DNA of 52,600 bases, taken from contig JAJZOG010000002.1 of the NCBI GenBank assembly GCA_021811585.1, positions 1 to 52,600 of the forward strand. The letters are read 5' to 3'. The stretch's first letter is position 1, and the number at the start of each line of letters is the position of its first letter. This document shows positions 19,756 through 52,558 of this stretch, one piece after another. The stretch is from a bacterium (GTDB lineage Bacteria; Patescibacteriota; Doudnabacteria; UBA920; VMFF01). Both the position numbers and the translations under genes were made by a program. Under the pieces are notes generated by a model. That model searched no databases. It saw nothing but the letters and a program-made list of their open reading frames with translations, and was not told where the DNA came from.

Positions 19756-19830
19756 GGCGCTATCGTCTAATGGTTAGGACACCACGCTTTCAATGTGGGA
19801 ATCCGGGTCCGATTCCCGGTAGCGCTACCA
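19756..19830 (+). tRNA. tRNA-Glu (TTC)
   Basis: GGCGCTA acceptor, loop CTTTCAA (anticodon TTC), GGGTCCGATTCCC T-arm, encoded CCA; TTGAAA-N17-TAAAAT promoter upstream. Confidence 0.95.
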
Positions 19831-21254
19831 GGCGGGATAGTTTGGCGGTTTGCGACCTCGCGGAATACAGAATCAAGCGTAAATACAGGGGTTTTGGAGC
19901 ACAGCTCGCGGTTCGAGGTTGAGATTTCCAGCAGATCACGTTTTTCGTAGGGATTTGCTTTTAAATACAATGAATATGCGCTTTTTGCGAGTTCGAGGAA
20001 TTTTTCCAACTTCGATGGCATGTCAGGCAGCGGCTCTTGACCCGAGGTCACATTGTTGATCTTTTGCCTCTCCAACAGAAGCGCGGTTCGGCGTTCCTCA
20101 AAAATTGTTTTTTCGAACACACCATCAAGATAGGCATCGGCCAGGCGGTTTAATTTCCATGAAATCTGGGACTCCTGAAGGCGCAAGCCGGCCTTAAATT
20201 CATCTTCTTTGTTTCCCCAATCCTGCCGAAATCCCGCAATGATGTCGTTGATGACGTAATCCTCTTCCGCGGTAAATTGAAGTGGCTTGAATTTCGAAAT
20301 TGCTTCATCATTTAACTTCTCTTCACGCACAGAATTCGTGGGACAGCTTTGGGTATGACAGCGGTAGTAGATATTGCCCTTTGCGATCTCGCCGATAATC
20401 GAATATCCGCAGTGGGCACAGCGCACCAGCCTGCGAAAAAGGAAATCGTGCCGAATAATTTTTGCGTTGGTCCTGCCCTCTGCCACGGCGCGCGCCCTTT
20501 CGAATAGCGAGGCGGAAATTATCGGCTGATGTGCGCCTTGGTAGATTTCGCCGGTTTTCTGAATTTCGATCAGGCCGGCATAAAAGGGATTGGACAAAAT
20601 ACGGGAAATGACGGTTTTTCCTACCTTCCCCCCTGATTTTGTACGCAGCCCCAGGCAATCCATTTTATCGCTCAACTCGATGATGCCGCACTGGCCTGAG
20701 GCATACAGCTCGAACATTCGCCTGATCAAGGGCATGGTCATTTGATCGGGCGTTTTTGGCTTTCCCGGGCCCTGGTCTTTGTATCCCAACGGGGCAGGAC
20801 GCGGGTATATCCCCTGCTTTAGCCTGCCGTAGAAACCTTTGCGGGTCTCTTCGCGCAAGTTGCGGATGTAGTCGGCGGCCACGACGGCTTGAATATCAGC
20901 CGAGAGCCGGCCGCCGCGTGATTGCAGGTCAACGGAATCATTGGCAAAACGAACGTCAATTCCGGAATCGATTAGTTCGCCGAGATCCGACCAGTCCTTA
21001 AGGTTTCTGGCGCTCCTGTCGATTTTATGGATGATGACGCCAGAGGCTCGCCCATTTCGCAGTAGTGAAAGCATTTGGGTGAAAACAGGCCGGCCAAGTT
21101 TTGCGGCTGTCTCTCGCTCTTCAAACCATCGGCTGATTTGAAGCTCGTGAATTTTGGCGTATCGTTCAATTGCTTCTCTCTGCTGAGGGAGCGACACTCC
21201 CTGTTCTCCCTGCCTTGCTGTGGAAACGCGGATATATGCGTAGAACTGCTTCAT
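19767..21254 (-). CDS. Large serine recombinase (resolvase + recombinase + zinc ribbon)
   Basis: YAYIRVSTARQGEQGVSLPQQREAIERYA; IIHKIDRSARNLKDWSDLGELID; CAHCGYSIIGEIAKGNIYYRCHTQSC; last ~20 codons (GSATGNRTRIPTLKAWCPNH) are antisense to tRNA-Glu. Confidence 0.93.
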   Translation of the reverse strand: MKQFYAYIRVSTARQGEQGVSLPQQREAIERYAKIHELQISRWFEERETAAKLGRPVFTQMLSLLRNGRASGVIIHKIDRSARNLKDWSDLGELIDSGIDVRFANDSVDLQSRGGRLSADIQAVVAADYIRNLREETRKGFYGRLKQGIYPRPAPLGYKDQGPGKPKTPDQMTMPLIRRMFELYASGQCGIIELSDKMDCLGLRTKSGGKVGKTVISRILSNPFYAGLIEIQKTGEIYQGAHQPIISASLFERARAVAEGRTNAKIIRHDFLFRRLVRCAHCGYSIIGEIAKGNIYYRCHTQSCPTNSVREEKLNDEAISKFKPLQFTAEEDYVINDIIAGFRQDWGNKEDEFKAGLRLQESQISWKLNRLADAYLDGVFEKTIFEERRTALLLERQKINNVTSGQEPLPDMPSKLEKFLELAKSAYSLYLKANPYEKRDLLEISTSNRELCSKTPVFTLDSVFREVANRQTIPPGSATGNRTRIPTLKAWCPNH

Positions 21255-36730: not shown

Positions 36731-37008
36731 GGGTGTGTATCCGTATTCCACAAAAAATATTAACAATTAAATGTCTAAAGTGTCAATTATTAATTCTGAA
36801 ATTTATGATTATACACAAAATATCATGACGGTGCTTTAATCGATTGACACAATACCGCAGTCGCTTCCTGCTTTGTGGATCAGGCATTAGCAGGCATAAA
36901 TTTACGATTTTTAATGTGATTTTCCGACTGTCTGGATGTTTACTATTCAGATACTTGACAAACATCCATGCAATAAATAAAATTTCACGCGATCTCACTG
37001 GAGACATT

Positions 37009-38589
37009 ATGCACCACGCCGTAAGCCCATTTGGAGTCATGCTTTCGATTATTTGTGTGTCTGTAGGGATATTGTATCTATGGTATTTAAAAAATCACGT
37101 ACGAAAAAATATCAAAATGGATTCATTTAACACTTTCTTTTTAGGTGGCGCAAGGATTGGTGAACGGCTAACAACAAATGATAATTGGGGACTTTGTTTT
37201 GCATTTGCTAATGCTATTTGGTACTATTCATACCTTGGATATTATTTTGGCTTATATGTATTTCTTATTCAACTATCTTGGTCTATAGGTGTAGTTTTCA
37301 TCGCTTGGCAACTACAACGTTATCTAGCCGGGAGCAAAGATGGAACCGTTCATGGATTTATAAGCCATACTTATGGGGTTAGGGCTTCCCTGCTTGCAGC
37401 GATAGCTACTTTAATAGGATATACACTCAATATTGGTTTTGAAATATTCTACTCTGCCCACCTATTAGTTACCTCCTTGGGTGGAATTAAATATGAGCTT
37501 CTTTTAGCAATATCAATTGCGATCTTTGTGGGCGGGTATTGTATCATTGGAGGTTATTTAAGCAATGTGGTTTCCGACCCTCTACAAAATAAATTGGCCT
37601 TGTTTTCTCAAATAGCGATTATTGGTCTGCTTATATTTTATTTCCCAACAATAATTCAAAAAAGCTCGATAAGCGCTATGTTAACCGTTTCTAAAACTAT
37701 TGATGCCCCTACGTCCTTTATTATTGGAGTAATAACGTTCTCTTTCTTTTTCAATTTAGTAGATATGGCAAATTGGCAATCAATGGCAGCAAATAAAGAC
37801 GTACCGAGAGAAGACCTAAAAAAAGTGAAAGTGGGATTTATAGTTTCTGCTGCACGCCAAATGATAGCTCCTGCGGCCTTAGGAACCTTATTTGGTGCTG
37901 CTCTCAGAGTTGTTTCATCTGGAGTGCCTGATGATGGTTATTTTGCCGTTCTATTTAAGCCATTATCGTCCTCTATGTCTCCTGTTACGGGTATATTATT
38001 AGGCATTATCATATTGGGGTTTTTCGCTGCAACTATTACTAGCGCTGGTAGTTATTTAATAGCAGCCATGCAGACCCTTGCGGTAGATGTTTTTAAACGT
38101 AAAGAAGCTGTTCAATTGAAAAATAGTGGAATTAATCCTGAGCAATTGCAAGAAGCAGAACAATTAGTGCTTGCATGGGTTAAGAGAATGATGATTCCTG
38201 TTGTACTAGCTATGACACTGGTTTTCGCGTTTTTATATTATGGGCTATCTAGAGTTAATATGCAGGGACTCGCCTTTCAATTTCAATTTGTAATGTATGG
38301 TGCGGCCGTCTCTCTTGTTCCGTCTGTCATATACGGCCTATTTCATAAAGCGCCTGTTGCCAACAGAAGTGCGGGCTTTTGGTCTATATTAATTGGATTG
38401 ATATTTGTCATTATTCCTTTTATTATGGCTGAGGTTTTTAGAAATATAAAACTTCCACTTAATTTAGGCTCCGATGATATCGTAAATCTAACGCCATTAT
38501 TTGGTTTAATTGCTTCAACTGGAACATTTTATATACTTAAAGGTACTAAGGTTGAAAAACACGCGAGTGCGGCCGTTGGAGGCGCATAA
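37009..38589 (+). CDS. Sodium:solute-symporter-like (SSS) multi-TM transporter
   Basis: MDSFNTFFLGGARIGERLTTNDNWGLCFAFANAIWYYSYLGYYFGLY... many TM segments; track ORF starts at 36844. Confidence 0.8.
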   Translation: MHHAVSPFGVMLSIICVSVGILYLWYLKNHVRKNIKMDSFNTFFLGGARIGERLTTNDNWGLCFAFANAIWYYSYLGYYFGLYVFLIQLSWSIGVVFIAWQLQRYLAGSKDGTVHGFISHTYGVRASLLAAIATLIGYTLNIGFEIFYSAHLLVTSLGGIKYELLLAISIAIFVGGYCIIGGYLSNVVSDPLQNKLALFSQIAIIGLLIFYFPTIIQKSSISAMLTVSKTIDAPTSFIIGVITFSFFFNLVDMANWQSMAANKDVPREDLKKVKVGFIVSAARQMIAPAALGTLFGAALRVVSSGVPDDGYFAVLFKPLSSSMSPVTGILLGIIILGFFAATITSAGSYLIAAMQTLAVDVFKRKEAVQLKNSGINPEQLQEAEQLVLAWVKRMMIPVVLAMTLVFAFLYYGLSRVNMQGLAFQFQFVMYGAAVSLVPSVIYGLFHKAPVANRSAGFWSILIGLIFVIIPFIMAEVFRNIKLPLNLGSDDIVNLTPLFGLIASTGTFYILKGTKVEKHASAAVGGA

Positions 38590-39239
38590 TGATCATCAAA
38601 TCAGCTTTAGGTTTTTTGGGTTTTGCATTACGGATACTTTTGTCTGCTTTAGCGACATATCTTATTTATATTAAGGTGCCGCTTCCATTTCCAGCTGTCG
38701 TCAGTATTTGGCAAATAACATTGTACCTATCATTTATATTCGTACCTTTACGATTAGACACGATACTCTTGCGCTCAAAAACAGATTCAATGTTAGTAGC
38801 GATTGAGCAGGAATATTATAACATTCCTCACCATATTCACAAGGATAGAATCATGATTTCGCAATTTTGGGACTCGCCAGTCGAGAAGGCCGCGCAAATA
38901 CGGTTCATTTCGAAAGCTTCTTCTATTCGGAAGCGTGCCATCGAGGAGTCTTTTATTCACGATATAATTCCTCTATTCCTGATTACAGCTATTACTATTG
39001 CATTTTCTATATTTTCAGCGAGTGGACAAATCCATATAAATAATAGCTTTATGGGAAGTTCATCGCTGCTGTCTTTCGTCCAAGGCCTGATTGTATTAAT
39101 GCCGCTCCTAATTATATTAGGGAAATTATTTGGGGTTATATCCTGCCACCGGGATACTGTTTTTATTGCATTGGATGCAAATATGCCGACCCATCCTCCC
39201 ACTCCTGTTGCTGCCGCTGCTAGGGCGTCTTCTCCGTGA
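38589..39239 (+). CDS. Membrane protein translationally coupled to the transporter
   Basis: TAATG overlap with the transporter stop; TM segments at both ends. Confidence 0.65.
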   Translation: MIIKSALGFLGFALRILLSALATYLIYIKVPLPFPAVVSIWQITLYLSFIFVPLRLDTILLRSKTDSMLVAIEQEYYNIPHHIHKDRIMISQFWDSPVEKAAQIRFISKASSIRKRAIEESFIHDIIPLFLITAITIAFSIFSASGQIHINNSFMGSSSLLSFVQGLIVLMPLLIILGKLFGVISCHRDTVFIALDANMPTHPPTPVAAAARASSP

Positions 39240-40011: not shown

Positions 40012-43000
40012 ATGCATCAATTCCAACGAATTTCATTCCGGCATTTGAATGGATGCGGGCTGCTCTTCCTGTTGGTTGCAACGGTTACGGCCCAGGTTCA
40101 ATTGCAGAGTATTCCCGTGAAGCACGGGCCGTGGTTGAAGCCGCTGCGCTTGAATCCTGCCGGCTCGACCGATCCATTGAAAATATTTCAGGTTTGGCGG
40201 CGGCGCAATCTGGTCACGCTGCCGGCAACGCCCGAGGTATGGCAGGCGCACCTGAAATGGCTGCAACTGCATCCGCGGATTGCGCGGCAACTGCGAAACA
40301 TGCGGCGCGTTCCGGCGCGGCGTGAGCGGACGGGCAATCTGAACCTGGCGGGGGTCGTGAGCGATGGGAATGTCGTGCCGGCGAATGGCCTGAGCGCGTA
40401 CCAGGGCGAGATCGCGGCAGCGATCAATCCCGGCAATGTGCAGCAGATGACGGCGTCGGCGAACTCTTTTTTGCCTGACCCACAATGTAGCGATATCTCG
40501 ACACTGTCGCTATACGGTTCGCAGGATGGCGGGCAAAACTGGAATTACAGTTGTGCCCCCATACCGTCCGTCTTGGACCACACCCTGTTCGGCTCGGATC
40601 CTTCGCTTGCTTGGGATGCCAATGGCAATGCCTATGCGGCGTATATGTTGTTGCGGAATGATCCCAATATTGCCAATACATACGATTCCGCCATCGTGGT
40701 GGCGAAAAGCAGCGATGGCGGGCAAAGCTGGACGAGCTTAGGGGTGGTGGTCAATCACTACGGCGATCCCTATCATTTCGACGACAAGGAAATGATCGCG
40801 GTTGACCGCAGCAGTGGTCAGGCGTATTCACATCCCAACCGGCTGTATGTCATCTGGGATGAAAACAATACCGAGATGATCGCCCATTCGGACGATGGCG
40901 CGAGTTGGTCGCCGGTCGTGGTTGAAGATGCGGCGGATGCGGGCGACGATATTGGCGGCAATTTAGCCATCGGTCCCGAGGGTACGGTGTATGCAATTTG
41001 GACCCGAGCCGGAAGCGCTCCGAACACGCCCTACGGCGGCGACAGCCTGGTGTTTTGCAAATCCAGCGACGGCGGCCAGAGTTGGACAGCGCCGGCGACG
41101 ATTGCTGCCGGTCAACTGGCGATCATTACTGACAATGTCCTAATCCCGGCGCAGGACCAGCGCGGCATCAATGCCTTCGGCTCGATTGCGGTGGACGATA
41201 GCGCCTCGGCATACCGCGGCTCGATCTATGTCGTTTATAACGAAACCCCGCCAGGCGTGAACGCGCCCGAGCCGCTGGATGGCATTCCCGTGCAGCCGGC
41301 GGTCAATATTTACGCGATTCAGTCGAGCGACGGCGGCGCGATCTGGAGCCCGCCGCTACAAGTAAATGACGATGGCAGCGATGGTGCCTCGCACTTTTTC
41401 CCCTGGTGCGTGGTGGACCCAACGAATGGGATTTTAAGCGTGGCCTGGTACGACACGCGCAACGATCCCGGATACTTGATGCGGACACAGATTTATTACG
41501 CGCAATCCACCGATGGAGGAGCCAGCTTTTCACCCAACCTGCAAGTGACGCAGGCGGCGTCCGGGCTGGACAATAGCTCGGTTGACTACAACGATGAGAA
41601 TTCGTTGGAAAACTTTTTTTCTAATCCCAACCAGTACGGCGATTACACCCAAGTCAGCGCGGCGGGCGGGAAAGTGCTGATTGGGTGGACGGACACGCGG
41701 CAATTTTATCCGCAAGACGGAGTGAATCCGCTGGGCGAGGATCTGGTAACGGACACGTTAGAGAACGGCGCGTCACTGACCTACACTATTTCCGGGCGCG
41801 TGACGGACGCAAACGGACAAGGCATTGCAGGCGTGGCGGTGGCGGCAGGCGGAGCCAGCGCGGCGACCGACGGCGCGGGTCACTATACGCTGTTCGGGCT
41901 GGCGAATGGCGATTATACGGTCAGCGCCAACTCGGCAAATTTCAGCTTTAGCCCGAACAGTATCGCGGTCTCCGTTCAATGCGCGCCCGTTGCCGGAGTG
42001 GATTTCACGGCAACCGCCACGGCTCTGGTGTATTCGATTTCAGGCCAGGTGACGCTGAACGGAACGGGGTTGGAAGGCGTGGCAGTAAGCGATGGAACCG
42101 CTATGGCGATCACGGATAATTCGGGCAATTATGTCCTGGCCGGCCTGCCGGCGGGCAATTACACGATCACCGCAACCGATCCTGCCTACAGCCTCGCGCC
42201 CGGCTCGCGAGCAGTAACGCTAGGCGGCGATGTTAACGGTATTGATTTCAGCGTGCCGGTGTATTCGATTTCGGGAAGAGTTTACGGCACCTGGCCGGAG
42301 GGAGGATCGCCTTGTTGCGCCTCCATTGGCGCCGTGGCCGGTGCTACCATACAGGCCGGAGGGCATGCCACGGTCACCGATGCGAATGGCGAGTACACGA
42401 TTTCCGGCTTGCCTTCAGGCACGTATATCGTTACCGCCCAAATGCCCGGCTTCTGGGTGAATGCCTCCTTCCCGCCCTTTATAGACGATCCCACCGAATA
42501 TGTGTTCTTGACCGGCGCCAATCAGGTCAACGTCGATTTCATTGCGCAGGCGCAAGGCGTCTATAAAATTACCGGCAATATCCAGCAAAACGGGGCTGGC
42601 GTTTCCGGCGTCAAAATCGCTAGCGGCAATACCTTCGGCATCAGCGACAGCCAGGGCCACTATGCGCTGTTCGAGAATGATGGCACTATCACTTTCACAC
42701 CCAGCAAGCCCGGGTATAGTTTCAGCCCCGCCAGCCAAACTTTTTCGATTCCGGCGGGCACTCCCAACGTCATAACCGGCCCGAATTTCAGCGCGACCGC
42801 CACCCAAGGCCTGCACAGCATCAGCGGACAGGTGACGAGCGGAGGCGCCGGCCTGGCAGGTGTGACCGTGGCCGCGGGTTTCAGCTCGGGATTAAGCGAT
42901 GCGCAGGGCAATTACACGATCAGCGGATTGAGCGACGGCGGCTACATGCTGGATGCTGTGGCCGATCAATACGTGTTTACGCCGGTGTGGCAGCCTGCCA

Positions 43001-44928
43001 CGGTGGCGGGCAGCGACATCGGCGGATTCAATTTTAGCGGCGCTACAGCCTTGTTTTCGATCTCAGGCACGATCGCCAATGAGGCCGGCCAACCGCTCGC
43101 TGGCGCAACCGTGACCACGCAACAATTTATCTCGACAACGCCAATTACGGCCACAACCGATGCCCAAGGAAACTACACCTTGAGCGGGCTGCCGCCACAA
43201 AGCGAGGCATACCTGGTAACGCCCAGCGACAAAGGATATAGTTTTCTGCCATTTTTTGGCTGGTCGCCGGTTTCTAACGCCGATGTCACCGGGATCAATT
43301 TCACCGCCATCCCGGCGCTTACAGTCAGCGGCAGAATTACAGACACCAGCGGCGCTGGAGTCGGCGAAATCTATATCTATCCCGATGTGGCCCTCAACAC
43401 CACCATTGAAACCGACAGCGAGGGCAATTACAGCCTGACGATGCCGCCCGGAGATTACACGCTCAGGCCGGTGGATGGCTTAGGGCTGTACAACTTCGAC
43501 CCTGCAGCAGCGCGTATCCATCTTGATACGAGCAATTTAAGCGGGGTCAATTTCAGCGCCTCGCAAAATTTTCAGATCTCCGGCCAGGTGCTGAACGGGG
43601 CTACGGGCGTGCCGGGCGCGTCGGTGAAGTTGTTCCTGGAATCGTTCAGTCTGGAAAATGCGACATACGGTGCCACGACAACCACCGATGCGCATGGCAC
43701 CTTTTATTTCAACAACGTGCCTTCCGACATCGGCGTGCAACTGATGCCGGTGCTGCCGGGCTATGGACTGAATCCCCCCGGCGAATATTTGCAAATGGTT
43801 TACGACCGGTTTTATCCGCCCGAAATCTTCCAGGTCGTGCCGGGGGCGGTGGTTTCCGGCACTGCCGCAGATGGACAAGGGAACCCCATTCCTTATGTGA
43901 TGCTGAACACCCAGCCCGCCACGCCCACCAGTTGGGATATCGAGACATATATCACCGATCCGAACGGGGTCTTTGCCGTAAGCATGCCGGCCGGCGGTTA
44001 CAAAATCACGCCTTGGGATGGAGTGCACGTATTCACGCCGGCGAGCGCGAACATCACCGTCCAGCCAGGAGCCGCGGTGAGCGTCAATTTCAGCGGCGCC
44101 GTTCCCACGCTGGCGATGAGCTTGGGACAAACGCAATACACCATCAACGGCAGCGTGAATACCCTGAATGACCCGGTTACGTTTACCAGCAACGTCAACC
44201 AGGCGGTGAACATTTCCTGCCCATGCAGTTACAGTCCCATGCCGATGCTGTCGCAAGGCAGCGGCACGCTTACCTTTAATGGGCTGGCCAACGGGGCCGA
44301 ATCGCAGCAGACGGAGACGATCGAGGCCAATCTTCTCGGAGCCACGCAAACCCAGACCGTCACGATCAACCGGCAAAGCCTGACGCTGGCGGCCGGCACA
44401 TCCAGCGCTACCGTCAATGCAGGGCAAATCGCGGATTATACGGTGAACGTGACTGCCGTGAATGGCTATGCCGGAGCTGTGACCCTCAGTTGCAGTTCGC
44501 AGGCGAATTATGTATGCAGCGCCAGCCCTGCGAATCCCTCGCTGTCCGCCAATGGCGCGGTCGCAGTTACCATTGCCGTAAATACGGCCGCCAAGACGAA
44601 TGGAAAGTCCAAACCAGGAAAGCATGGGGCAGGCTGGGCCGGCGGATTCAGCCTGGGCGGGCTGGGGTTGGCCCTTCTGATCGCCTGGCTGCCGATCGGC
44701 AAGCGTTCCGGGCAAGGCCGGCGCTCCGCAGCTCGGCGCAGGGTCCGGCGTTGGACGCCGGCGTTGTTGTTTCTCGCCATGAGCGGCTGCGGCGGTAACC
44801 CAAGTTATACGCCTCCCCCTCCGACGCCCATCACGACTACGGTGTCCAGCAGTGTGATTGTCTATGCCACCGCGGGGAGTCTCGCCCAGACGCTCACGTT
44901 GACCTTAAACGTGCAAACCACAAGCTGA
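40012..44928 (+). CDS. Secreted 1638-aa protein: Asp-box/BNR propeller plus about nine carboxypeptidase-regulatory-like repeats
   Basis: Asp boxes GSQDGGQNW, KSSDGGQSW, HSDDGASW, KSSDGGQSW, QSSDGGAIW, QSTDGGASF; repeats of SISGxV..G.gl.GV.v...g...Td..GnYtlsgLp.G.Y. Confidence 0.88.
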   Translation: MHQFQRISFRHLNGCGLLFLLVATVTAQVQLQSIPVKHGPWLKPLRLNPAGSTDPLKIFQVWRRRNLVTLPATPEVWQAHLKWLQLHPRIARQLRNMRRVPARRERTGNLNLAGVVSDGNVVPANGLSAYQGEIAAAINPGNVQQMTASANSFLPDPQCSDISTLSLYGSQDGGQNWNYSCAPIPSVLDHTLFGSDPSLAWDANGNAYAAYMLLRNDPNIANTYDSAIVVAKSSDGGQSWTSLGVVVNHYGDPYHFDDKEMIAVDRSSGQAYSHPNRLYVIWDENNTEMIAHSDDGASWSPVVVEDAADAGDDIGGNLAIGPEGTVYAIWTRAGSAPNTPYGGDSLVFCKSSDGGQSWTAPATIAAGQLAIITDNVLIPAQDQRGINAFGSIAVDDSASAYRGSIYVVYNETPPGVNAPEPLDGIPVQPAVNIYAIQSSDGGAIWSPPLQVNDDGSDGASHFFPWCVVDPTNGILSVAWYDTRNDPGYLMRTQIYYAQSTDGGASFSPNLQVTQAASGLDNSSVDYNDENSLENFFSNPNQYGDYTQVSAAGGKVLIGWTDTRQFYPQDGVNPLGEDLVTDTLENGASLTYTISGRVTDANGQGIAGVAVAAGGASAATDGAGHYTLFGLANGDYTVSANSANFSFSPNSIAVSVQCAPVAGVDFTATATALVYSISGQVTLNGTGLEGVAVSDGTAMAITDNSGNYVLAGLPAGNYTITATDPAYSLAPGSRAVTLGGDVNGIDFSVPVYSISGRVYGTWPEGGSPCCASIGAVAGATIQAGGHATVTDANGEYTISGLPSGTYIVTAQMPGFWVNASFPPFIDDPTEYVFLTGANQVNVDFIAQAQGVYKITGNIQQNGAGVSGVKIASGNTFGISDSQGHYALFENDGTITFTPSKPGYSFSPASQTFSIPAGTPNVITGPNFSATATQGLHSISGQVTSGGAGLAGVTVAAGFSSGLSDAQGNYTISGLSDGGYMLDAVADQYVFTPVWQPATVAGSDIGGFNFSGATALFSISGTIANEAGQPLAGATVTTQQFISTTPITATTDAQGNYTLSGLPPQSEAYLVTPSDKGYSFLPFFGWSPVSNADVTGINFTAIPALTVSGRITDTSGAGVGEIYIYPDVALNTTIETDSEGNYSLTMPPGDYTLRPVDGLGLYNFDPAAARIHLDTSNLSGVNFSASQNFQISGQVLNGATGVPGASVKLFLESFSLENATYGATTTTDAHGTFYFNNVPSDIGVQLMPVLPGYGLNPPGEYLQMVYDRFYPPEIFQVVPGAVVSGTAADGQGNPIPYVMLNTQPATPTSWDIETYITDPNGVFAVSMPAGGYKITPWDGVHVFTPASANITVQPGAAVSVNFSGAVPTLAMSLGQTQYTINGSVNTLNDPVTFTSNVNQAVNISCPCSYSPMPMLSQGSGTLTFNGLANGAESQQTETIEANLLGATQTQTVTINRQSLTLAAGTSSATVNAGQIADYTVNVTAVNGYAGAVTLSCSSQANYVCSASPANPSLSANGAVAVTIAVNTAAKTNGKSKPGKHGAGWAGGFSLGGLGLALLIAWLPIGKRSGQGRRSAARRRVRRWTPALLFLAMSGCGGNPSYTPPPPTPITTTVSSSVIVYATAGSLAQTLTLTLNVQTTS

Positions 44929-45793: not shown

Positions 45794-46576
45794 TTGGGAA
45801 TATCCCGCAGTAGCCTTTACTACAAATCACGCTTAGATGCTAAAGACTGGCAAACTAAGATTAAGATGGAAGAAGAACTTCAAGTGCATCCATCCTACGG
45901 ATCAAGGAATTTAGCCAAAGCGCTTCATATTGGCAGGGATCAAGCCAGAAGGGTGATGCGCAAATATGGTATTAAGCCTTACAGGAGAAGGAGAATTAAA
46001 AAATGGCGTAAACCAAAGCATTCTCACACATTCCCTAACCTGCTTTTGGCTGCACGTCCTAGTTATGAAGATCATGTTTGGGCCACTGATTTTACGGAGT
46101 TAATTTTCCATGGCAGTAAAGTATACATATCAACCATAATTGACTTGTTTACCAGGAAAACCGCGGGGTTGCATGTTGGGGTACGCAAAGGAGCAGCCTT
46201 AACTATTCAAACGCTTGCCAATGCCTTAATGCACAAACCGCCACCCAATATTCTTCATTCTGATAATGGCAAAGAATATGAAGCCCAAAGCTACGTTAAT
46301 ATGCTTAATCAATTTGGTATTAACATCTCCAGGTCAAGGCCGGCTTGTCCTTGGGAAAATGGCTATCAGGAAAGTTTTTATGGCAAATTCAAGCTGGATT
46401 TAGGAGACCCAAACAGATTTAAAACACTAGGTGGACTTGTTGCTGAAATATACAGAGTTATCTGGCATTACAACAATACCAGAATACATTCAGCTCTAAA
46501 TATGCCGCCTGCCATATTTGCCAACCAGCAGGCATCAAAAAAGACGACTTTAGGAGTCGTCGAATTACTGTCTTAA
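45794..46576 (+). CDS. IS3-type OrfB DDE transposase
   Basis: YEDHVWATDFTELIF..KVYISTIIDLFTRK..HSDNGKEYEA..SRPACPWENGYQESFYGKFK..YNNTRIHSALNMPPAIF; the -1 frame is open back to the slippery site. Confidence 0.95.
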   Translation: MGISRSSLYYKSRLDAKDWQTKIKMEEELQVHPSYGSRNLAKALHIGRDQARRVMRKYGIKPYRRRRIKKWRKPKHSHTFPNLLLAARPSYEDHVWATDFTELIFHGSKVYISTIIDLFTRKTAGLHVGVRKGAALTIQTLANALMHKPPPNILHSDNGKEYEAQSYVNMLNQFGINISRSRPACPWENGYQESFYGKFKLDLGDPNRFKTLGGLVAEIYRVIWHYNNTRIHSALNMPPAIFANQQASKKTTLGVVELLS

Positions 46577-46728
46577 AAAACCAGACCTTGACAGCGACCC
46601 CTGCTATTTCAATCGCATCTTTAAGAAGAATCTGGGCATGACCCCTGGGGAAGCTCGCTCCCGAATCGCGCGAAATTTGCCTGTAATACTCGCCGAGTAT
46701 CAGGATTAGCCTCGCCTGGTCCACCAGC

Positions 46729-46865: not shown

Positions 46866-49800
46866 ATGCGACTCTCATGGCTCGGCAGGGTAGTGAGTCT
46901 ATGTATTGGCTTAATATTAATACTTTCAACAATGGCCTGGGCGCAGGAAGCGAATTTTACCGATGTGACCTCTACGCCTGTGCCTGGAGCCGGCCATGAC
47001 TACATTAAAGGCCTGAATGAAAGCGTGAACCCCGGGAATGGGTCTCTCAGTATACATATCAACATCCCGCTTCCCGCCGGGCGTCAGCTCAACATCCCCT
47101 TCTCCATCAATTACGACTCCACGGAAACCAACTATCCAGCCGGCACGTCAGGAATCGGCTGGAAGAGTGCCGAAAATCTAGAGCGGATAGGCGGATGGAC
47201 CTACACTGAGCCCGTGGTTACGGCCTCGACCAATCAATCAACAATTCAAGTGGCTTTCAATGAATTGGTTACGTGCGATGTATCTATTAACTATATGGCG
47301 ACAGACCTTACCGGACAGTCGCATCCGCTCGATCTCTCCATTTATGGAATCAAGCCCGGCTCCCGACCCTATGGCCAATACAACAGCAGTTGCTCGCAAT
47401 CGCTTTACCCGGATGGTACAAGCCCGGTGCAACGGACTACGGGCGGGGATGCGCCTTTCTATGCGGATACCAGCGCCGATACCTCAAACGGCACCTCATT
47501 TCAATTTAATCCGGTTACGATGATCGCGCCGGATGGCACTCGTATAACTTTTCCCGGCGGTCCGGCAGGCGATGGGACCAGCTACTCGGAACGCGCTAAT
47601 CAGCTTGAAGACCGAAATGGCAATATTATTACCGTGACTGCAACAGGCACTACGGGTTTTTACTATACTGACACTCTAGGCCGCACATTACTATCAGTGT
47701 CGAGTATAGGTGGAGCCCCTGATGATATTTATGTATCCGGCATCAGCAATCCTTACGTGGTTAATTGGACAAATACCAATGTGAGTTGGAACCCCGCGGC
47801 GGTTCCTCTTTCGGGGACTTACTGTACTGGTTTCTCATCGCTGAGCACATTACGAGGCGTAATCAGCTCGATTCAATTACCGAACGGCCAAAGCTACCAA
47901 TTCCAATATGATGGGACGTATGGATTTGTCAGTAAAATTATTTATCCCTCGGGCGGATATGTCCGATACGTGTGGGGATTGCAAAATCCTTGGGAAGTAG
48001 GAGATTATTCGTGCGGTTCTTACCGTTATGCCTGGCCAGTAATTACCGATCGGTACGTAAGCTATGATGGCACGAATGAAGTATTGCACCAGCATTTTAA
48101 CTATTCCGAAAGTTATACTTCAGGCGAAGATGGTTATGATAGCAGGACCACTACGATAACCACCTACGATATGGCGCGGAACACACAATATCAAACGGTA
48201 TACACTTATAAACCATTGTACGTCCAACCACAAATTAATGACAATTCTGTGAGCTCGAATACGGTGACGCTTGAGCAGGAGATCCAATATTATAATTACA
48301 ATGGAAATTTGTTGAAAACCGTTAACAAAACATGGGGCGGTATTAAAGAATTATTGACGCGCACGGTTCAGTATAATGATAACTCAAATAACCCTACTCG
48401 AGAAATCGCCTGGCATTATGATAATAATCTACAAACTACCGAAATTGATAATTACGATTTCGGCAATGGGTCGCCCGGCGCTTTATTGCGGAAAAAGCTG
48501 ATTAGCTATGCCAGCTTTGGTAATAATCCCTGGAACGAACCCAGCCATATCGTGGACCGCCCGAGCCAGGTGGAAATCGAGGATGGCAGCGGTAATGTCT
48601 GTTCGCAGACGCTTTATGATTATGACCAGCAGGATACACAATCAACGTCGGGCATTTCGCAGCATGACGATACAAATTATTCGAGTAGTTTTAATGTGCG
48701 AGGCAATCTGACCGAGGTTCAACGGTGGGATAATAATACCTGTTCCACTAGCCCGGGCGGCAATTATCTCAATACAACGATTACTTATGACGATACTGGC
48801 CAACCGTTGATATTGACCAATCCCCGCGGCTACCAAACCTCTTTGGGTTATGCCGATCAGAACGCTTATGTATCAACTTTTACGGACTCCATGGGCGACG
48901 TTTGGCAGCGTAGCTATAACCAAGCAACCGGAACGCTAGCCTCGCAGATTGATCCCAACAATCAAACGACGAGCTTTTATTACAATGACATCCTTTCGCG
49001 GCTGACGGAAATAGATTTTCCCGACAGCGGCAAGACTACGGTTGCCTATGACGACACACCGGGCCAGGTTTCGACAACTGTCCAGCGTTACCTGAATGGC
49101 TCCGCTTGGACCGATCAGGTCACGCTTTATAATGGTTTGGGAATGCAATTGTCCGTATCCACCGCCAATGGCGAGGGCAGCCCCTGGGATCGCCATGATA
49201 CTGAGTACGATGGTGATGGCCGCATTCTGGTGTCCGGCTATGCCTACCAAACCGGTACGAGTCCGACGACTTGGCCGTCCAGCTTTACCGGAGACACTTT
49301 TACCTATGATTCCCTGGGGCGAACAACAGTCGATACCCACAGTGATGGCACCTCAGCCAACACTACATATTCGGGAAGAGCTTTGGAAGTATCCGATGAG
49401 GGCGACGGCAGCTACAATGTCACACGCATTTCCCAGATCAACGGCTTAAAGCAGGTGCTGGATCTATGTGAAGTGACGACTATTACCGATGCAGCAGGCA
49501 ACGCAGCCAACCAATGTGGCGGCCTCGATATCACGCCTTCGGGTGGATTTCTGACTACGTATGGATATGATACATTAGGCAATCTGATATCTGTGACACA
49601 AAATGGCAGCGCACATTCATTGAATCCGCGTACTTATAGTTTTGACACTTTATCGCGTTTGATTTCATCCACCAACCCGGAATCCGGCACCACCACCTAT
49701 GCCTATGACGGCGACAGCAATTGTTCGAGCAGCTATCCGGGGCTTTTGGCCAGCCAAACCGATCCGCGCGGCATTCGCACCTGCTTTCAGTACGATCCGC

Positions 49801-51791
49801 TGAATCGGGTAACGCAAAAAAGTTATTCGGATGGCACCGCCAGCGCCAATTTTGTTTATAGTTCCACCAATAGCTTGATTGGCAGCTATATGGGTATTTC
49901 GCTGACCAACACCATTGGCCGTTTGGCGTATGAATATACCGGCACAAGTCCTTCATCGCCCCAAACCGCGGAAGTCTTTTCCTATGACGCGCTCGGTCGC
50001 ATCGTCAACAACTCGCAGTGCGTCACCTACACGTGCTCCAGTGGGAATTTCTTCCCAGTTTCCTACGGATGGGACAATGCCGGCGAGCTGACGAGCTCAA
50101 CCAATGGCGCCGGGGTGAGCTTTACCGATGCCTACAACCAGGCGGAGCGTCTGATCAGCCTGGTGAGCAGTATCGGCAATACCACGCTGATTTCCGGACT
50201 GCACTATAATGCCTTTGGGGAAGAGGTCTCCGGCGCGCTGGGAAGCGGCCAGGGTGAAAGCCGGGGCTATGACGTGCGTGGACGCCTCACCAGCATGGAT
50301 CTGGGCAGTTCTGTTTACACCCTTTCGCTCAGCTATATGCCGAATGGCACGATCGATACGGCCGATGATTCGGTCAACGGCAATTGGACTTTCAGCTACG
50401 ATCCGCAAAACCGGCTGAGCGCCAGTTCCTGCTCAGCGAACTCCACCGCCAATTGTCCCGATGGGGGCGCGTCGCAGGGCTTTAGCTATTCCTACGACCG
50501 CTATGGCAATCGCTGGGCGCAGACGGTGACTGCGGGCACGGGCCCGGGGCCCTCCAATTCCTTCACCGGTGGCAACAATCACATGGATGGCTATAGCTAT
50601 GACGCCGCCGGCGATCTGCTCAGCGACGGCCATTGCACCTATACCTACGACGGCGCCGGCCGGATCAGCTCCGTCTCATCCTGTGCATCGGCCAGCTACA
50701 TCTATAACGCCAGCGGCCAGCGGGTTTACAAGGAGACTGGCACTATTGAGAAGGCATACGTAGTCGATTTGGCCGCCAATGCGGTGGCGCATTTTACCTA
50801 CAACGGCACGGCCTGGAGCTACGATCGCGGCGAGGTTTACGCCGGCGGGCGGCATCTGGCCACCTACAATAGCGGCACGCTTTACTACAACCAATCCGAT
50901 TGGCTGGGAACCGAGCGGATGCGCACCACATCGAGTGGCACGCCCTGTGAGGCGATTCAAAGCCTGCCCTACGGCGATGGGCAAAATACGATTGCCCAAA
51001 ATGGCGGCTGCGGCGACCCCTCGCCACTGCATTTTACCGGCAAGCAGCGCGATGCCGAATCGGGACTCGATTATTTCGGCGCGCGTTATAACGACAGCAG
51101 CCTCGGCCGTTTCATGACGCCCGATCCGTTGAATGGGAAGCTTGGGAATGGATTGAGTTGGAACCGTTATCTGTACACCTTAGATAATCCCGTTACCTTT
51201 ACCGATCCGACGGGAATGGCGCCTGACCTTCCCCCAACTGCAGCAGGCGAACCTCAAGAAACCTGCGGAGGAACTTTTGAATGTGCGGGAACAAGTGATA
51301 AAACTGATACAAATACCAGAAAAGTTCAAAAAAAGGCGCAACAGCAGTTGAGCCAGAAAGGTCTTGAATTCATAGCCCGCCATGAAGGACTCGGCGGAAA
51401 GAAGGTAGGTGGCAGATACCAGGTATACAAAGACGCCTATGGCAATCCGACTGTCGGCTATGGCCACCTCGTCAGAGGCGAGGATTTTTCCAAAGGCGTC
51501 ACGAAAGCGCAGGCCCTCGCTCTCCTGAAGAGTGATGCTCAAACCGCTGTATCGTTCGTGAACGGGCATCTGTCAGGGACTCTGAAGCAAACCCAGTTTG
51601 ATTCCTTGGTGGACGTTGCTTTCAATAGCGAAAGAGCAGCAGCGATCCTCATCAAAAGAGTCAATAGCTCCGAGACAATGGGACCGGCTAATTTTGTAAA
51701 CACGCTCCCACACGGCTATCACAGTCTGCCTGGTTTAATCAACCGACGTGAAGACGAAGCGAATCTATTTCTGAATGGGGGCTATCAATGA
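46866..51791 (+). CDS. Secreted Rhs/YD-repeat protein with C-terminal T4-type lysozyme (GH24-like) domain
   Basis: Sec-type signal (MRLSWLGRVVSLCIGLILILSTMAWAQ); YD repeats; core 'LDYFGARYNDSSLGRFMTPDPLN...NRYLYTLDNPVTFTDPTGM'; C-term 'GLEFIARHEGLGGKKVGGRYQVYKDAYGNPTVGYGHLV'. Confidence 0.93.
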   Translation: MRLSWLGRVVSLCIGLILILSTMAWAQEANFTDVTSTPVPGAGHDYIKGLNESVNPGNGSLSIHINIPLPAGRQLNIPFSINYDSTETNYPAGTSGIGWKSAENLERIGGWTYTEPVVTASTNQSTIQVAFNELVTCDVSINYMATDLTGQSHPLDLSIYGIKPGSRPYGQYNSSCSQSLYPDGTSPVQRTTGGDAPFYADTSADTSNGTSFQFNPVTMIAPDGTRITFPGGPAGDGTSYSERANQLEDRNGNIITVTATGTTGFYYTDTLGRTLLSVSSIGGAPDDIYVSGISNPYVVNWTNTNVSWNPAAVPLSGTYCTGFSSLSTLRGVISSIQLPNGQSYQFQYDGTYGFVSKIIYPSGGYVRYVWGLQNPWEVGDYSCGSYRYAWPVITDRYVSYDGTNEVLHQHFNYSESYTSGEDGYDSRTTTITTYDMARNTQYQTVYTYKPLYVQPQINDNSVSSNTVTLEQEIQYYNYNGNLLKTVNKTWGGIKELLTRTVQYNDNSNNPTREIAWHYDNNLQTTEIDNYDFGNGSPGALLRKKLISYASFGNNPWNEPSHIVDRPSQVEIEDGSGNVCSQTLYDYDQQDTQSTSGISQHDDTNYSSSFNVRGNLTEVQRWDNNTCSTSPGGNYLNTTITYDDTGQPLILTNPRGYQTSLGYADQNAYVSTFTDSMGDVWQRSYNQATGTLASQIDPNNQTTSFYYNDILSRLTEIDFPDSGKTTVAYDDTPGQVSTTVQRYLNGSAWTDQVTLYNGLGMQLSVSTANGEGSPWDRHDTEYDGDGRILVSGYAYQTGTSPTTWPSSFTGDTFTYDSLGRTTVDTHSDGTSANTTYSGRALEVSDEGDGSYNVTRISQINGLKQVLDLCEVTTITDAAGNAANQCGGLDITPSGGFLTTYGYDTLGNLISVTQNGSAHSLNPRTYSFDTLSRLISSTNPESGTTTYAYDGDSNCSSSYPGLLASQTDPRGIRTCFQYDPLNRVTQKSYSDGTASANFVYSSTNSLIGSYMGISLTNTIGRLAYEYTGTSPSSPQTAEVFSYDALGRIVNNSQCVTYTCSSGNFFPVSYGWDNAGELTSSTNGAGVSFTDAYNQAERLISLVSSIGNTTLISGLHYNAFGEEVSGALGSGQGESRGYDVRGRLTSMDLGSSVYTLSLSYMPNGTIDTADDSVNGNWTFSYDPQNRLSASSCSANSTANCPDGGASQGFSYSYDRYGNRWAQTVTAGTGPGPSNSFTGGNNHMDGYSYDAAGDLLSDGHCTYTYDGAGRISSVSSCASASYIYNASGQRVYKETGTIEKAYVVDLAANAVAHFTYNGTAWSYDRGEVYAGGRHLATYNSGTLYYNQSDWLGTERMRTTSSGTPCEAIQSLPYGDGQNTIAQNGGCGDPSPLHFTGKQRDAESGLDYFGARYNDSSLGRFMTPDPLNGKLGNGLSWNRYLYTLDNPVTFTDPTGMAPDLPPTAAGEPQETCGGTFECAGTSDKTDTNTRKVQKKAQQQLSQKGLEFIARHEGLGGKKVGGRYQVYKDAYGNPTVGYGHLVRGEDFSKGVTKAQALALLKSDAQTAVSFVNGHLSGTLKQTQFDSLVDVAFNSERAAAILIKRVNSSETMGPANFVNTLPHGYHSLPGLINRREDEANLFLNGGYQ

Positions 51792-52558
51792 TTATCCACC
51801 AGCGCGCGTTAGCATGCATGGGTCCAGCGGCCCTATTTATTCTGTTCATTCCGGGAATTGCTCAGGCAAGGACGTCCAGTCCAAAGCCCCCATGTGACAG
51901 CGCCGCCAGTTGCAACCAACTCGGCACGCAGGCTTTCAAGAGGGGTGATATCCCCGCAGCAATTCAACTGTTCAAACTTCAGGTGGGTTACGCGGAAGAT
52001 GCACAGGACGCGAAACAGTCTGCGGCTGCGTACAACAACCTCGCGCTCGCCTATATGCGAGAGCGGGACTACCTCCGAGCCTCAGCATGGACGCGCCTAG
52101 CACTTCAGGCCGATTCAAAAAGCCAAGCAGCGAAGCACAATCTAATAGGAATTCAAAAGGGCTTGGCTCATCACCGTTGGCCAACAAACATCGGTGGAAC
52201 CTATGTCCAATATGCAGGCCGGACACAGTGGAATTCCCTCTGTGTGTCAAAGCTGCAAGACAAGGGCTTTCATTTCAGGCTGCTTGCCTACCGCATGGGA
52301 GCTGCTTGGCGACGCTACGGTCCCGCAGCGTTAGGTGACCTTAAAGGTGAGGCGACTTTAACCGCCGAAGACGACGCTCAGTATAAAGGCGCTGCCGATT
52401 TTCCCACCTGCCACATTGAGATGAAATTCACACCGAATGGGGTCACTCTCGAACAGCAGGGCGACTGCGGTTTCGGACATGGAGTTCGCGCTGCCGGACA
52501 CTATGAGCGGATCAATACAGTCGGCAATGACAACTGTGACGAGCACGGCCTTCCTTGA
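51788..52558 (+). CDS. Secreted TPR protein with Cys-containing C-terminal domain; candidate immunity protein
   Basis: ATGA overlap with the Rhs stop; signal-like N-terminus (ALACMGPAALFILFIPGIAQA); TPR-like 'NQLGTQAFKRGDIPAAIQLFKLQ..AAAYNNLALAYMRERDYLRAS'; C-term '..QQGDCGFGHGVRAAGHYERI'. Confidence 0.7.
   Translation: MIIHQRALACMGPAALFILFIPGIAQARTSSPKPPCDSAASCNQLGTQAFKRGDIPAAIQLFKLQVGYAEDAQDAKQSAAAYNNLALAYMRERDYLRASAWTRLALQADSKSQAAKHNLIGIQKGLAHHRWPTNIGGTYVQYAGRTQWNSLCVSKLQDKGFHFRLLAYRMGAAWRRYGPAALGDLKGEATLTAEDDAQYKGAADFPTCHIEMKFTPNGVTLEQQGDCGFGHGVRAAGHYERINTVGNDNCDEHGLP

What the first reader, a model, noticed from the sequence alone, without database searches (positions are those of the whole stretch)
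46866..52558. Rhs-lysozyme effector overlapping a secreted putative immunity protein
The YD/Rhs shell carries the usual hypervariable break after the conserved NPVTFTDPTGM, followed by a T4-type lysozyme-like domain (E..D-x5-T-x-GYGH pattern: HEG...YKDAYGNPTVGYGH, with a longer E-to-D spacing than T4 lysozyme). The next gene overlaps by 4 nt and has its own signal peptide, as expected for immunity to a periplasmic muramidase. It couples a TPR region to a C-terminal domain ending in CGFGHGVRAAGHYERI that I recognise only vaguely as lysozyme-inhibitor-like. The Rhs protein has a Sec-type signal and no PAAR or T6SS motif, so the export route is unclear. Domain names are established; the toxin/immunity pairing and TPR-immunity architecture are inference.
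Basis: partly seen in the sequence, partly recalled or inferred. Interest (0 to 1): 0.75.

Follow-up and report, generated by a model that had tools for sequence, protein, structure and literature searches.

The report
Rhs toxin with a lysozyme tip
A bacterium, probably one of the tiny-genome Patescibacteria, carries a large exported Rhs-type toxin gene whose variable end is a phage-type lysozyme, followed at once by a secreted protein that may protect the producer but belongs to a widespread family that is usually found with no lysozyme nearby.

Summary
46866-51791 is an Rhs/YD protein with a Sec-type leader. After NPVTFTDPTGM it switches to a genuine GH24 (T4-type) muramidase with E, D and T all present. 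The 4-nt overlap and the exported downstream protein (TPR helices plus an eight-stranded beta-barrel) are also real.

Most likely it is a Sec-exported polymorphic toxin of Acidobacteriota type. Two Acidobacteriota Rhs proteins with a related shell change at the same motif to other tips (YkuD; Ntox44-like). Each is followed at once by a different exported or membrane protein.

The immunity role is only positional. Relatives of the downstream protein are solitary exported genes in Gammaproteobacteria and Acidobacteriota. No GH24 gene lies near any of them, and the barrel matches no known inhibitor family.

The bin looks like a Patescibacteria genome. From a tRNA-Glu onward the contig has a resident-type serine recombinase and foreign cargo, and an IS copy beside Rhs recurs in a core contig. 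So the toxin may be an acquisition by a CPR cell, though a chimeric join is not excluded.

It is a new member of a known kind with an unproven partner.

The parts
46866..51791 (+). Rhs/YD-repeat protein, 1641 aa, Sec-type signal peptide, Acidobacteriota-type shell
   Evidence: best shell match is Acidisarcina polymorpha plasmids, E 2e-84 over 86% of the shell; Patescibacteria Rhs only 25-47% and partial, best 33% over aa 613-1458
46866..46943 (+). signal peptide of the Rhs protein (about 26 aa, cleavage near AWA-QE)
   Evidence: read from the sequence; no signal-peptide predictor available
50967..51218 (+). Rhs-associated core ending NPVTFTDPTGM, the conserved break and presumed self-cleavage motif
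   Evidence: TIGR03696 E 3.8e-18 at aa 1368-1451; the same break is seen in L127 and L181
51219..51791 (+). variable C-terminal tip, 190 aa: about 60-aa linker plus GH24 muramidase domain (PF00959 covers 51408-51758; catalytic E 51384, D 51432, T 51450)
51788..52558 (+). exported TPR plus beta-barrel protein, 256 aa, overlaps the Rhs stop by 4 nt (ATGA): candidate immunity protein
   Evidence: AlphaFold2 mean pLDDT 88.5: helices 39-127, strands 137-243
52175..52525 (+). C-terminal eight-stranded beta-barrel domain (unnamed family; invariant G, C...CGFG, V, G)
   Evidence: alignment A4; model pLDDT 90.1; no Pfam/NCBIfam/PDB sequence match
45794..46576 (+). IS3-type transposase (rve) 290 nt upstream of Rhs; 46081-46593 also present at 98.6% in contig C12 of the same genome
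19756..21254 (.). tRNA-Glu (19756-19830, +) with an overlapping serine recombinase (19767-21254, -): left boundary of the foreign segment that carries the Rhs locus

Best explanation
The locus encodes a Sec-exported polymorphic Rhs toxin of Acidobacteriota type whose tip is a GH24 N-acetylmuramidase. The YD-repeat shell would be exported and would hold the tip. Cleavage after DPTGM would free about 190 residues, and the GH24 domain would then cut the glycan strands of peptidoglycan in a neighbouring cell. The downstream gene is translationally coupled by a 4-nt overlap. It most likely encodes a co-exported protector that keeps the producer's own wall safe, built by recruiting a member of a widespread exported TPR/beta-barrel family. 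Shown here by sequence: the shell, the break, the GH24 domain with its catalytic residues, the leader-like N-termini and the gene overlap. Inferred: self-cleavage, target, export route and protection.
For: GH24 tip with intact E/D/T. The same shell type carries different tips after the same motif: G564 Rhs ends in YkuD (E 1.4e-12) and Acidisarcina Rhs in an Ntox44-like domain (E 5e-4, below cut-off). Each is followed within about 10 nt by a different membrane or exported protein. That is the polymorphic-toxin pattern described in PMC3482391, which lists L,D-peptidase and glucosaminidase toxins but whose text has no muramidase and mentions lysozyme only as a fold name. Precedent for muramidase effectors with linked neutralising proteins: VgrG3cp-TsiV3cp (PMC9927483). 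T4 gp61.3 is a periplasmic inhibitor of a T4-type lysozyme (PMC7650644). The 4-nt overlap and two leader-like N-termini are seen directly.
Against: Relatives of the downstream protein occur without GH24 or Rhs next to them in the gammaproteobacterial, Campylobacterales, Legionella and Acidobacteriota loci examined. GH24-tipped Rhs was not seen in 396 sampled Acidobacteriota genomes, so no second pair was available to confirm co-inheritance. The barrel has no significant match to a known inhibitor.
Confidence: 0.55

Rival explanations
1. The Rhs-GH24 protein is a toxin, but the downstream gene is not its immunity protein. It is a general exported TPR/beta-barrel protein that happens to sit downstream, and protection comes from caging by the Rhs shell or from another gene beyond the contig end.
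For: The family is found as solitary genes in 59 confirmed loci plus E. coli, Salmonella and Acinetobacter with no GH24 within the fetched flanks. The contig ends 42 nt after the gene, so further genes cannot be seen.
Against: A 4-nt overlap with a matching export signal is unusual for an unrelated gene. Two other Acidobacteriota-type Rhs genes also have an exported or membrane protein directly downstream.
Confidence: 0.28
2. The Rhs-GH24 protein is not an antagonistic toxin. It is a surface-displayed or secreted muramidase for wall remodelling, attachment to a host cell or feeding, and the downstream protein is a chaperone or regulator of it.
For: The leader is Sec-type and no delivery machine is encoded nearby. 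In a monoderm-like Patescibacteria cell Sec alone would place it outside. The lysozyme family is widespread as endolysins and wall enzymes.
Against: The sharp, motif-defined switch of tips between related shells is the signature of polymorphic toxins rather than of housekeeping enzymes.
Confidence: 0.12
3. The segment is not part of this genome: the contig is a chimeric join, or the right half was misbinned, and the locus simply belongs to an Acidobacteriota bacterium.
For: Tetranucleotide correlation to the bin falls from 0.96 to 0.65-0.8 right of 19.8 kb and GC rises to 0.58. Rhs shell and downstream protein both match Acidobacteriota best.
Against: The recombinase at the tRNA-Glu junction is 51% identical full-length to one in a same-order genome that also overlaps a tRNA-Glu. 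An IS3 piece beside Rhs recurs at 98.6% in contig C12, which encodes GMP synthase and has bin composition. An integrated element would be expected to differ in composition.
Confidence: 0.4

Closest known systems
Polymorphic toxins with RHS repeats (Zhang et al. 2012, PMC3482391), including WapA/Rhs-type Sec-exported forms
   Same: Sec-type leader, YD repeats, Rhs core, break at DPxG, short enzymatic C-terminal tip, adjacent small gene
   Different: The tip is a GH24 muramidase; that paper's text has no occurrence of muramidase and its only use of lysozyme is the fold name of Tox-Glucosaminidase. The partner is not a catalogued immunity family as far as Pfam shows.
VgrG3cp-TsiV3cp (pesticin-like muramidase effector and immunity, Vibrio cholerae, PMC9927483)
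   Same: Lysozyme-type domain at the C-terminus of a large delivery protein, with a linked downstream protective gene
   Different: Delivered by T6SS on VgrG; pesticin-like catalytic order differs; the immunity protein was not compared here
T4 gp5 lysozyme and Spackle gp61.3 (PMC7650644)
   Same: A periplasmic protein that inhibits a T4-type lysozyme by a 1:1 complex: works like the proposed pair
   Different: gp61.3 has a fold described as novel; phage superinfection exclusion, not an Rhs toxin
MliC/PliC lysozyme inhibitors
   Same: Small exported eight-stranded beta-barrel
   Different: No sequence match; Foldseek to PliC-St only E 0.5-1.2; MliC/PliC act on c-type, not GH24, lysozymes (established knowledge)
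Free-standing GH24 endolysins of phages and prophages
   Same: Tip shares the domain (27-43% identity in most matches)
   Different: Here fused to Rhs, with a 7-residue insert between catalytic E and D

Membership tests
Rhs/YD polymorphic toxin | YD/RHS repeats and Rhs-associated core | tested here: met
   PF05593 2.5e-25, TIGR03696 3.8e-18
Rhs/YD polymorphic toxin | conserved shell with a tip that changes at a fixed point | tested here: met
   Window GH24, G564 YkuD and Acidisarcina Ntox44-like tips all follow ...DP[TA]G[ML]
Rhs/YD polymorphic toxin | cognate immunity gene directly downstream | tested here: inconclusive
   Overlapping exported gene present, but its family is usually independent of lysozymes
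Rhs/YD polymorphic toxin | toxic tip, released by self-cleavage | not testable with these tools
   Motif DPTGM present; activity needs the bench
GH24 (T4-type) lysozyme | profile match above curated cut-off | tested here: met
   PF00959 68 bits against 22.3
GH24 (T4-type) lysozyme | catalytic Glu, Asp, Thr | tested here: met
   HEG...YKDAYGNPTVGYGH aligned to five phage enzymes; phi29 lacks the Asp in the same alignment, so that position is not absolute
GH24 (T4-type) lysozyme | muramidase activity | not testable with these tools
   needs a zymogram
T6SS Rhs effector | PAAR or VgrG delivery domain | tested here: not met
   no such domain in the 1641-aa protein; leader-like N-terminus instead
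MliC/PliC lysozyme inhibitor (PF09864) | sequence profile match | tested here: not met
   no match in the window protein or 36 relatives
MliC/PliC lysozyme inhibitor (PF09864) | eight-stranded beta-barrel fold | tested here: inconclusive
   eight strands predicted; Foldseek match to PliC-St not significant, TM 0.42/0.53
LprI-type protein (PF07007) | sequence profile match | tested here: not met
   no match in 37 members
TPR protein | tandem helix pairs matching TPR profiles | tested here: met
   TPR_2 matches 30 of 37 members; five helices modelled at pLDDT above 90

The most novel reading that the evidence does not exclude
A Patescibacteria (CPR) cell carries, on a tRNA-Glu integrative element with Acidobacteriota-type cargo, a Sec-exported Rhs toxin with a muramidase tip. 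Its immunity protein would come from an uncharacterised, widespread family of exported TPR/beta-barrel proteins, whose solitary members elsewhere might be general guards against GH24-type muramidases.
Probability: 0.2. Interest if true: 0.7.

Novelty: new member of a known kind. Interest (0 to 1): 0.42.

Why it matters
It adds GH24 muramidase to the enzymes seen at the tip of Sec-exported Rhs shells. It also gives a concrete functional guess for an unnamed, widely distributed exported domain (CGFGxxVxAxGxY) found in E. coli, Salmonella, Acinetobacter, Legionella and Acidobacteriota. If the Patescibacteria location holds, it is a case of cross-phylum transfer of a wall-cutting weapon into a reduced-genome, probably host-dependent cell. 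In a cell without an outer membrane the puzzle of the export route largely disappears.

Tried and rejected
Pfam, NCBIfam, PHROGs and PADLOC searches gave no name for the C-terminal domain. A single-protein scan of genome contigs and viral contigs for the downstream protein found nothing; an alignment query was needed, and a viral scan with the domain alignment also found nothing. A viral-contig scan with the lysozyme tip failed. Foldseek with the full-length model was dominated by TPRs, so the domain was folded alone. A guessed tRNA pattern search was uninformative.

Considered and dropped: T6SS effector (no PAAR); MliC or LprI membership (no profile match); an Rhs-linked origin of the Salmonella relative (an Rhs fragment lies about 6 kb away on the other strand, but the gene sits in a different operon); other Acidobacteriota Rhs-GH24 fusions (G564 has an Rhs and a GH24 side by side, but the GH24 is next to phage-tail-like genes and on the opposite strand).

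An early reading of the right half as simple bin contamination was weakened by the recombinase and IS evidence.

Full report
WHAT IS THERE. The window is one whole contig (C15, 52600 nt) of a 748.7-kb, 91%-complete bin. Its two last genes are the finding. The first, 46866-51791, encodes 1641 aa with a Sec-type leader, RHS/YD repeats (PF05593 2.5e-25) and a Rhs-associated core (TIGR03696 3.8e-18, aa 1368-1451) ending in NPVTFTDPTGM. The remaining 190 aa are a linker and a GH24 lysozyme domain: PF00959 at 68 bits (cut-off 22.3), PHROG 7 endolysin 2.4e-25, and 13 solved GH24 lysozymes at 6e-11 to 6e-6. A profile built from five phage lysozymes alone finds the tip in the window at 1.9e-24. The catalytic Glu, Asp and Thr line up with the phage enzymes; a 7-residue insert lengthens the Glu-Asp gap from 9 to 16. 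A comparable long gap exists in the GH24 protein of L142.

The second gene, 51788-52558, overlaps by 4 nt and has its own leader. Its AlphaFold2 model (mean pLDDT 88.5) has five TPR-like helices (39-127) and an eight-stranded barrel (137-243). The barrel alone gave pLDDT 90.1.

THE SHELL AND ITS TIPS. The shell's best match among 72,556 plasmid records is Acidisarcina polymorpha (Acidobacteriota), 30% over 86% of its length, E 2e-84. Rhs proteins are present in 20 of 287 sampled genomes of the bin's own phylum, but those resemble the window shell only partially (best: 33% over aa 613-1458, E 3e-37). A second Acidobacteriota genome, G564, has a 2448-aa Rhs sharing the N-terminal motif P-[VI]-PG-x-GH-[DN]-YI-x-GL-x-E-[ST]-VNP-x-NGSLS and the core. 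After the DP[TA]G[ML] motif the window has GH24, G564 has YkuD (1.4e-12), and Acidisarcina has an Ntox44-like domain (5e-4, below cut-off). Each is followed almost at once by a different gene: an exported TPR/barrel protein overlapping by 4 nt, a 107-aa membrane protein after 8 nt, and a 151-aa protein with a leader and a GGC motif after 2 nt. That is the layout of polymorphic toxins (PMC3482391).

HOW RARE IS THE TIP. In 396 sampled genomes of the phylum of G312 (its locus L086 is titled Acidobacteria) the lysozyme tip matched 21 genomes, always in short frames of 146-272 aa except one of 640 aa. That one is GH24 plus PG_binding plus YkuD, not Rhs. No Rhs-GH24 fusion was seen, nor among the 60 plasmid records listed, which carry lysozyme, holin or unnamed annotations.

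THE DOWNSTREAM FAMILY. tblastn found relatives on Salmonella and Acinetobacter records (31% over 80%), then in three E. coli chromosomes between yegP and yegQ/trhP. An alignment-guided scan gave 59 loci, mostly Enterobacterales, Pseudomonas and Acinetobacter, with one Campylobacterales MAG, two Acidobacteria and two Legionella. In 65 loci (1.24 Mb with flanks) there is no GH24 match, and only one unrelated Rhs fragment about 6 kb from the Salmonella gene. In Acidobacteriota the barrel occurs in 20 of 396 genomes, mostly as short leader-bearing proteins of about 150 aa, none with GH24 or Rhs within the fetched flanks of about 1.5 kb. The closest relative found, in G664, has the same TPR-plus-barrel build (38% identity) and is also solitary. 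The barrel has no Pfam, NCBIfam or PDB-sequence match. Foldseek finds only non-significant lipocalin-like barrels, PliC-St among them. So 'lysozyme-inhibitor-like' is at most a remote fold resemblance.

MOST LIKELY MECHANISM. The shell is exported by Sec, presents or cages the tip, is cut after DPTGM, and the muramidase attacks the glycan strands of a contacted cell. The overlapping exported gene makes the protector. Muramidase effectors with linked neutralising proteins exist (VgrG3cp-TsiV3cp, PMC9927483), and an exported inhibitor of a T4-type lysozyme exists (gp61.3, PMC7650644), so the proposal needs no new principle. The toxin reading is well supported by anatomy. The immunity reading rests on position, overlap and export signal only, and the family's habit of living alone is evidence against an exclusive pairing. 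It is compatible with recruitment of a general exported protein.

WHERE IT LIVES. The left 19.7 kb has bin composition (tetranucleotide r about 0.96) and core genes (uvrC, murC, RNase J, trpS, EF-P). Genome size and relatives point to Patescibacteria (inference). At tRNA-Glu 19756-19830 composition changes (r down to 0.65, GC up to 0.58). A serine recombinase overlapping the tRNA is 51% identical, full length, to one in same-order genome G007, which also overlaps a tRNA-Glu. A 513-nt IS3 piece next to Rhs is 98.6% identical to one in contig C12, a core contig with GMP synthase. These favour a real integrated element with Acidobacteriota-type cargo. A chimeric assembly is not excluded without reads, and no second attachment site was found in the window.

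VERDICT. Observation confirmed; interpretation partly supported; a new member of the polymorphic Rhs toxins with an uncommon tip, an unproven partner and a possibly interesting host.

Noticed in passing
19756-52600: From a tRNA-Glu (19756-19830) onward the contig looks like an integrated element: serine recombinase overlapping the tRNA, TlpA-like protein, Dam methylase, TraG-like ATPase, replication-relaxation protein, tyrosine integrase, IS3, Rhs. A same-order genome (G007) has a 51% identical recombinase at a tRNA-Glu too.
   Followed up: partly
46081-46593: IS3 piece 98.6% identical to contig C12 (19851-20363) of the same genome; useful anchor for deciding residence against chimera.
   Followed up: yes
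40012-44928: 1638-aa leader-bearing protein with BNR-like and many CarboxypepD_reg domains ending in a C-terminal stretch that, from memory, looks typical of Acidobacteriota; GC 0.59.
   Followed up: partly
36844-39239: Low-GC (0.38-0.40) two-gene island (solute-symporter-like and membrane protein) with codon use unrelated to the rest of the contig.
   Followed up: no
1-127: The first about 127 nt of the contig are shared at 99-100% with ends or stretches of four other contigs of the bin: probably assembly-overlap or a repeat.
   Followed up: no
L181:5759-13437: Acidobacteriota Sec-type Rhs of 2448 aa with a YkuD (L,D-transpeptidase) tip and a 107-aa membrane protein 8 nt downstream: a second wall-directed tip on a related shell, next to a prophage-like segment with a GH24 endolysin.
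   Followed up: partly
L030:9947-10666, L031:9836-10555, L027:7875-8594: The E. coli/Salmonella relatives of the downstream protein sit in a variable spot beside baeSR, with DUF4034, DUF1266 and PcfJ genes in several strains: an unexplained gene set.
   Followed up: no
L183:2484-4349: 621-aa Acidobacteriota protein joining GH24, PG_binding_1 and YkuD domains in one chain.
   Followed up: no
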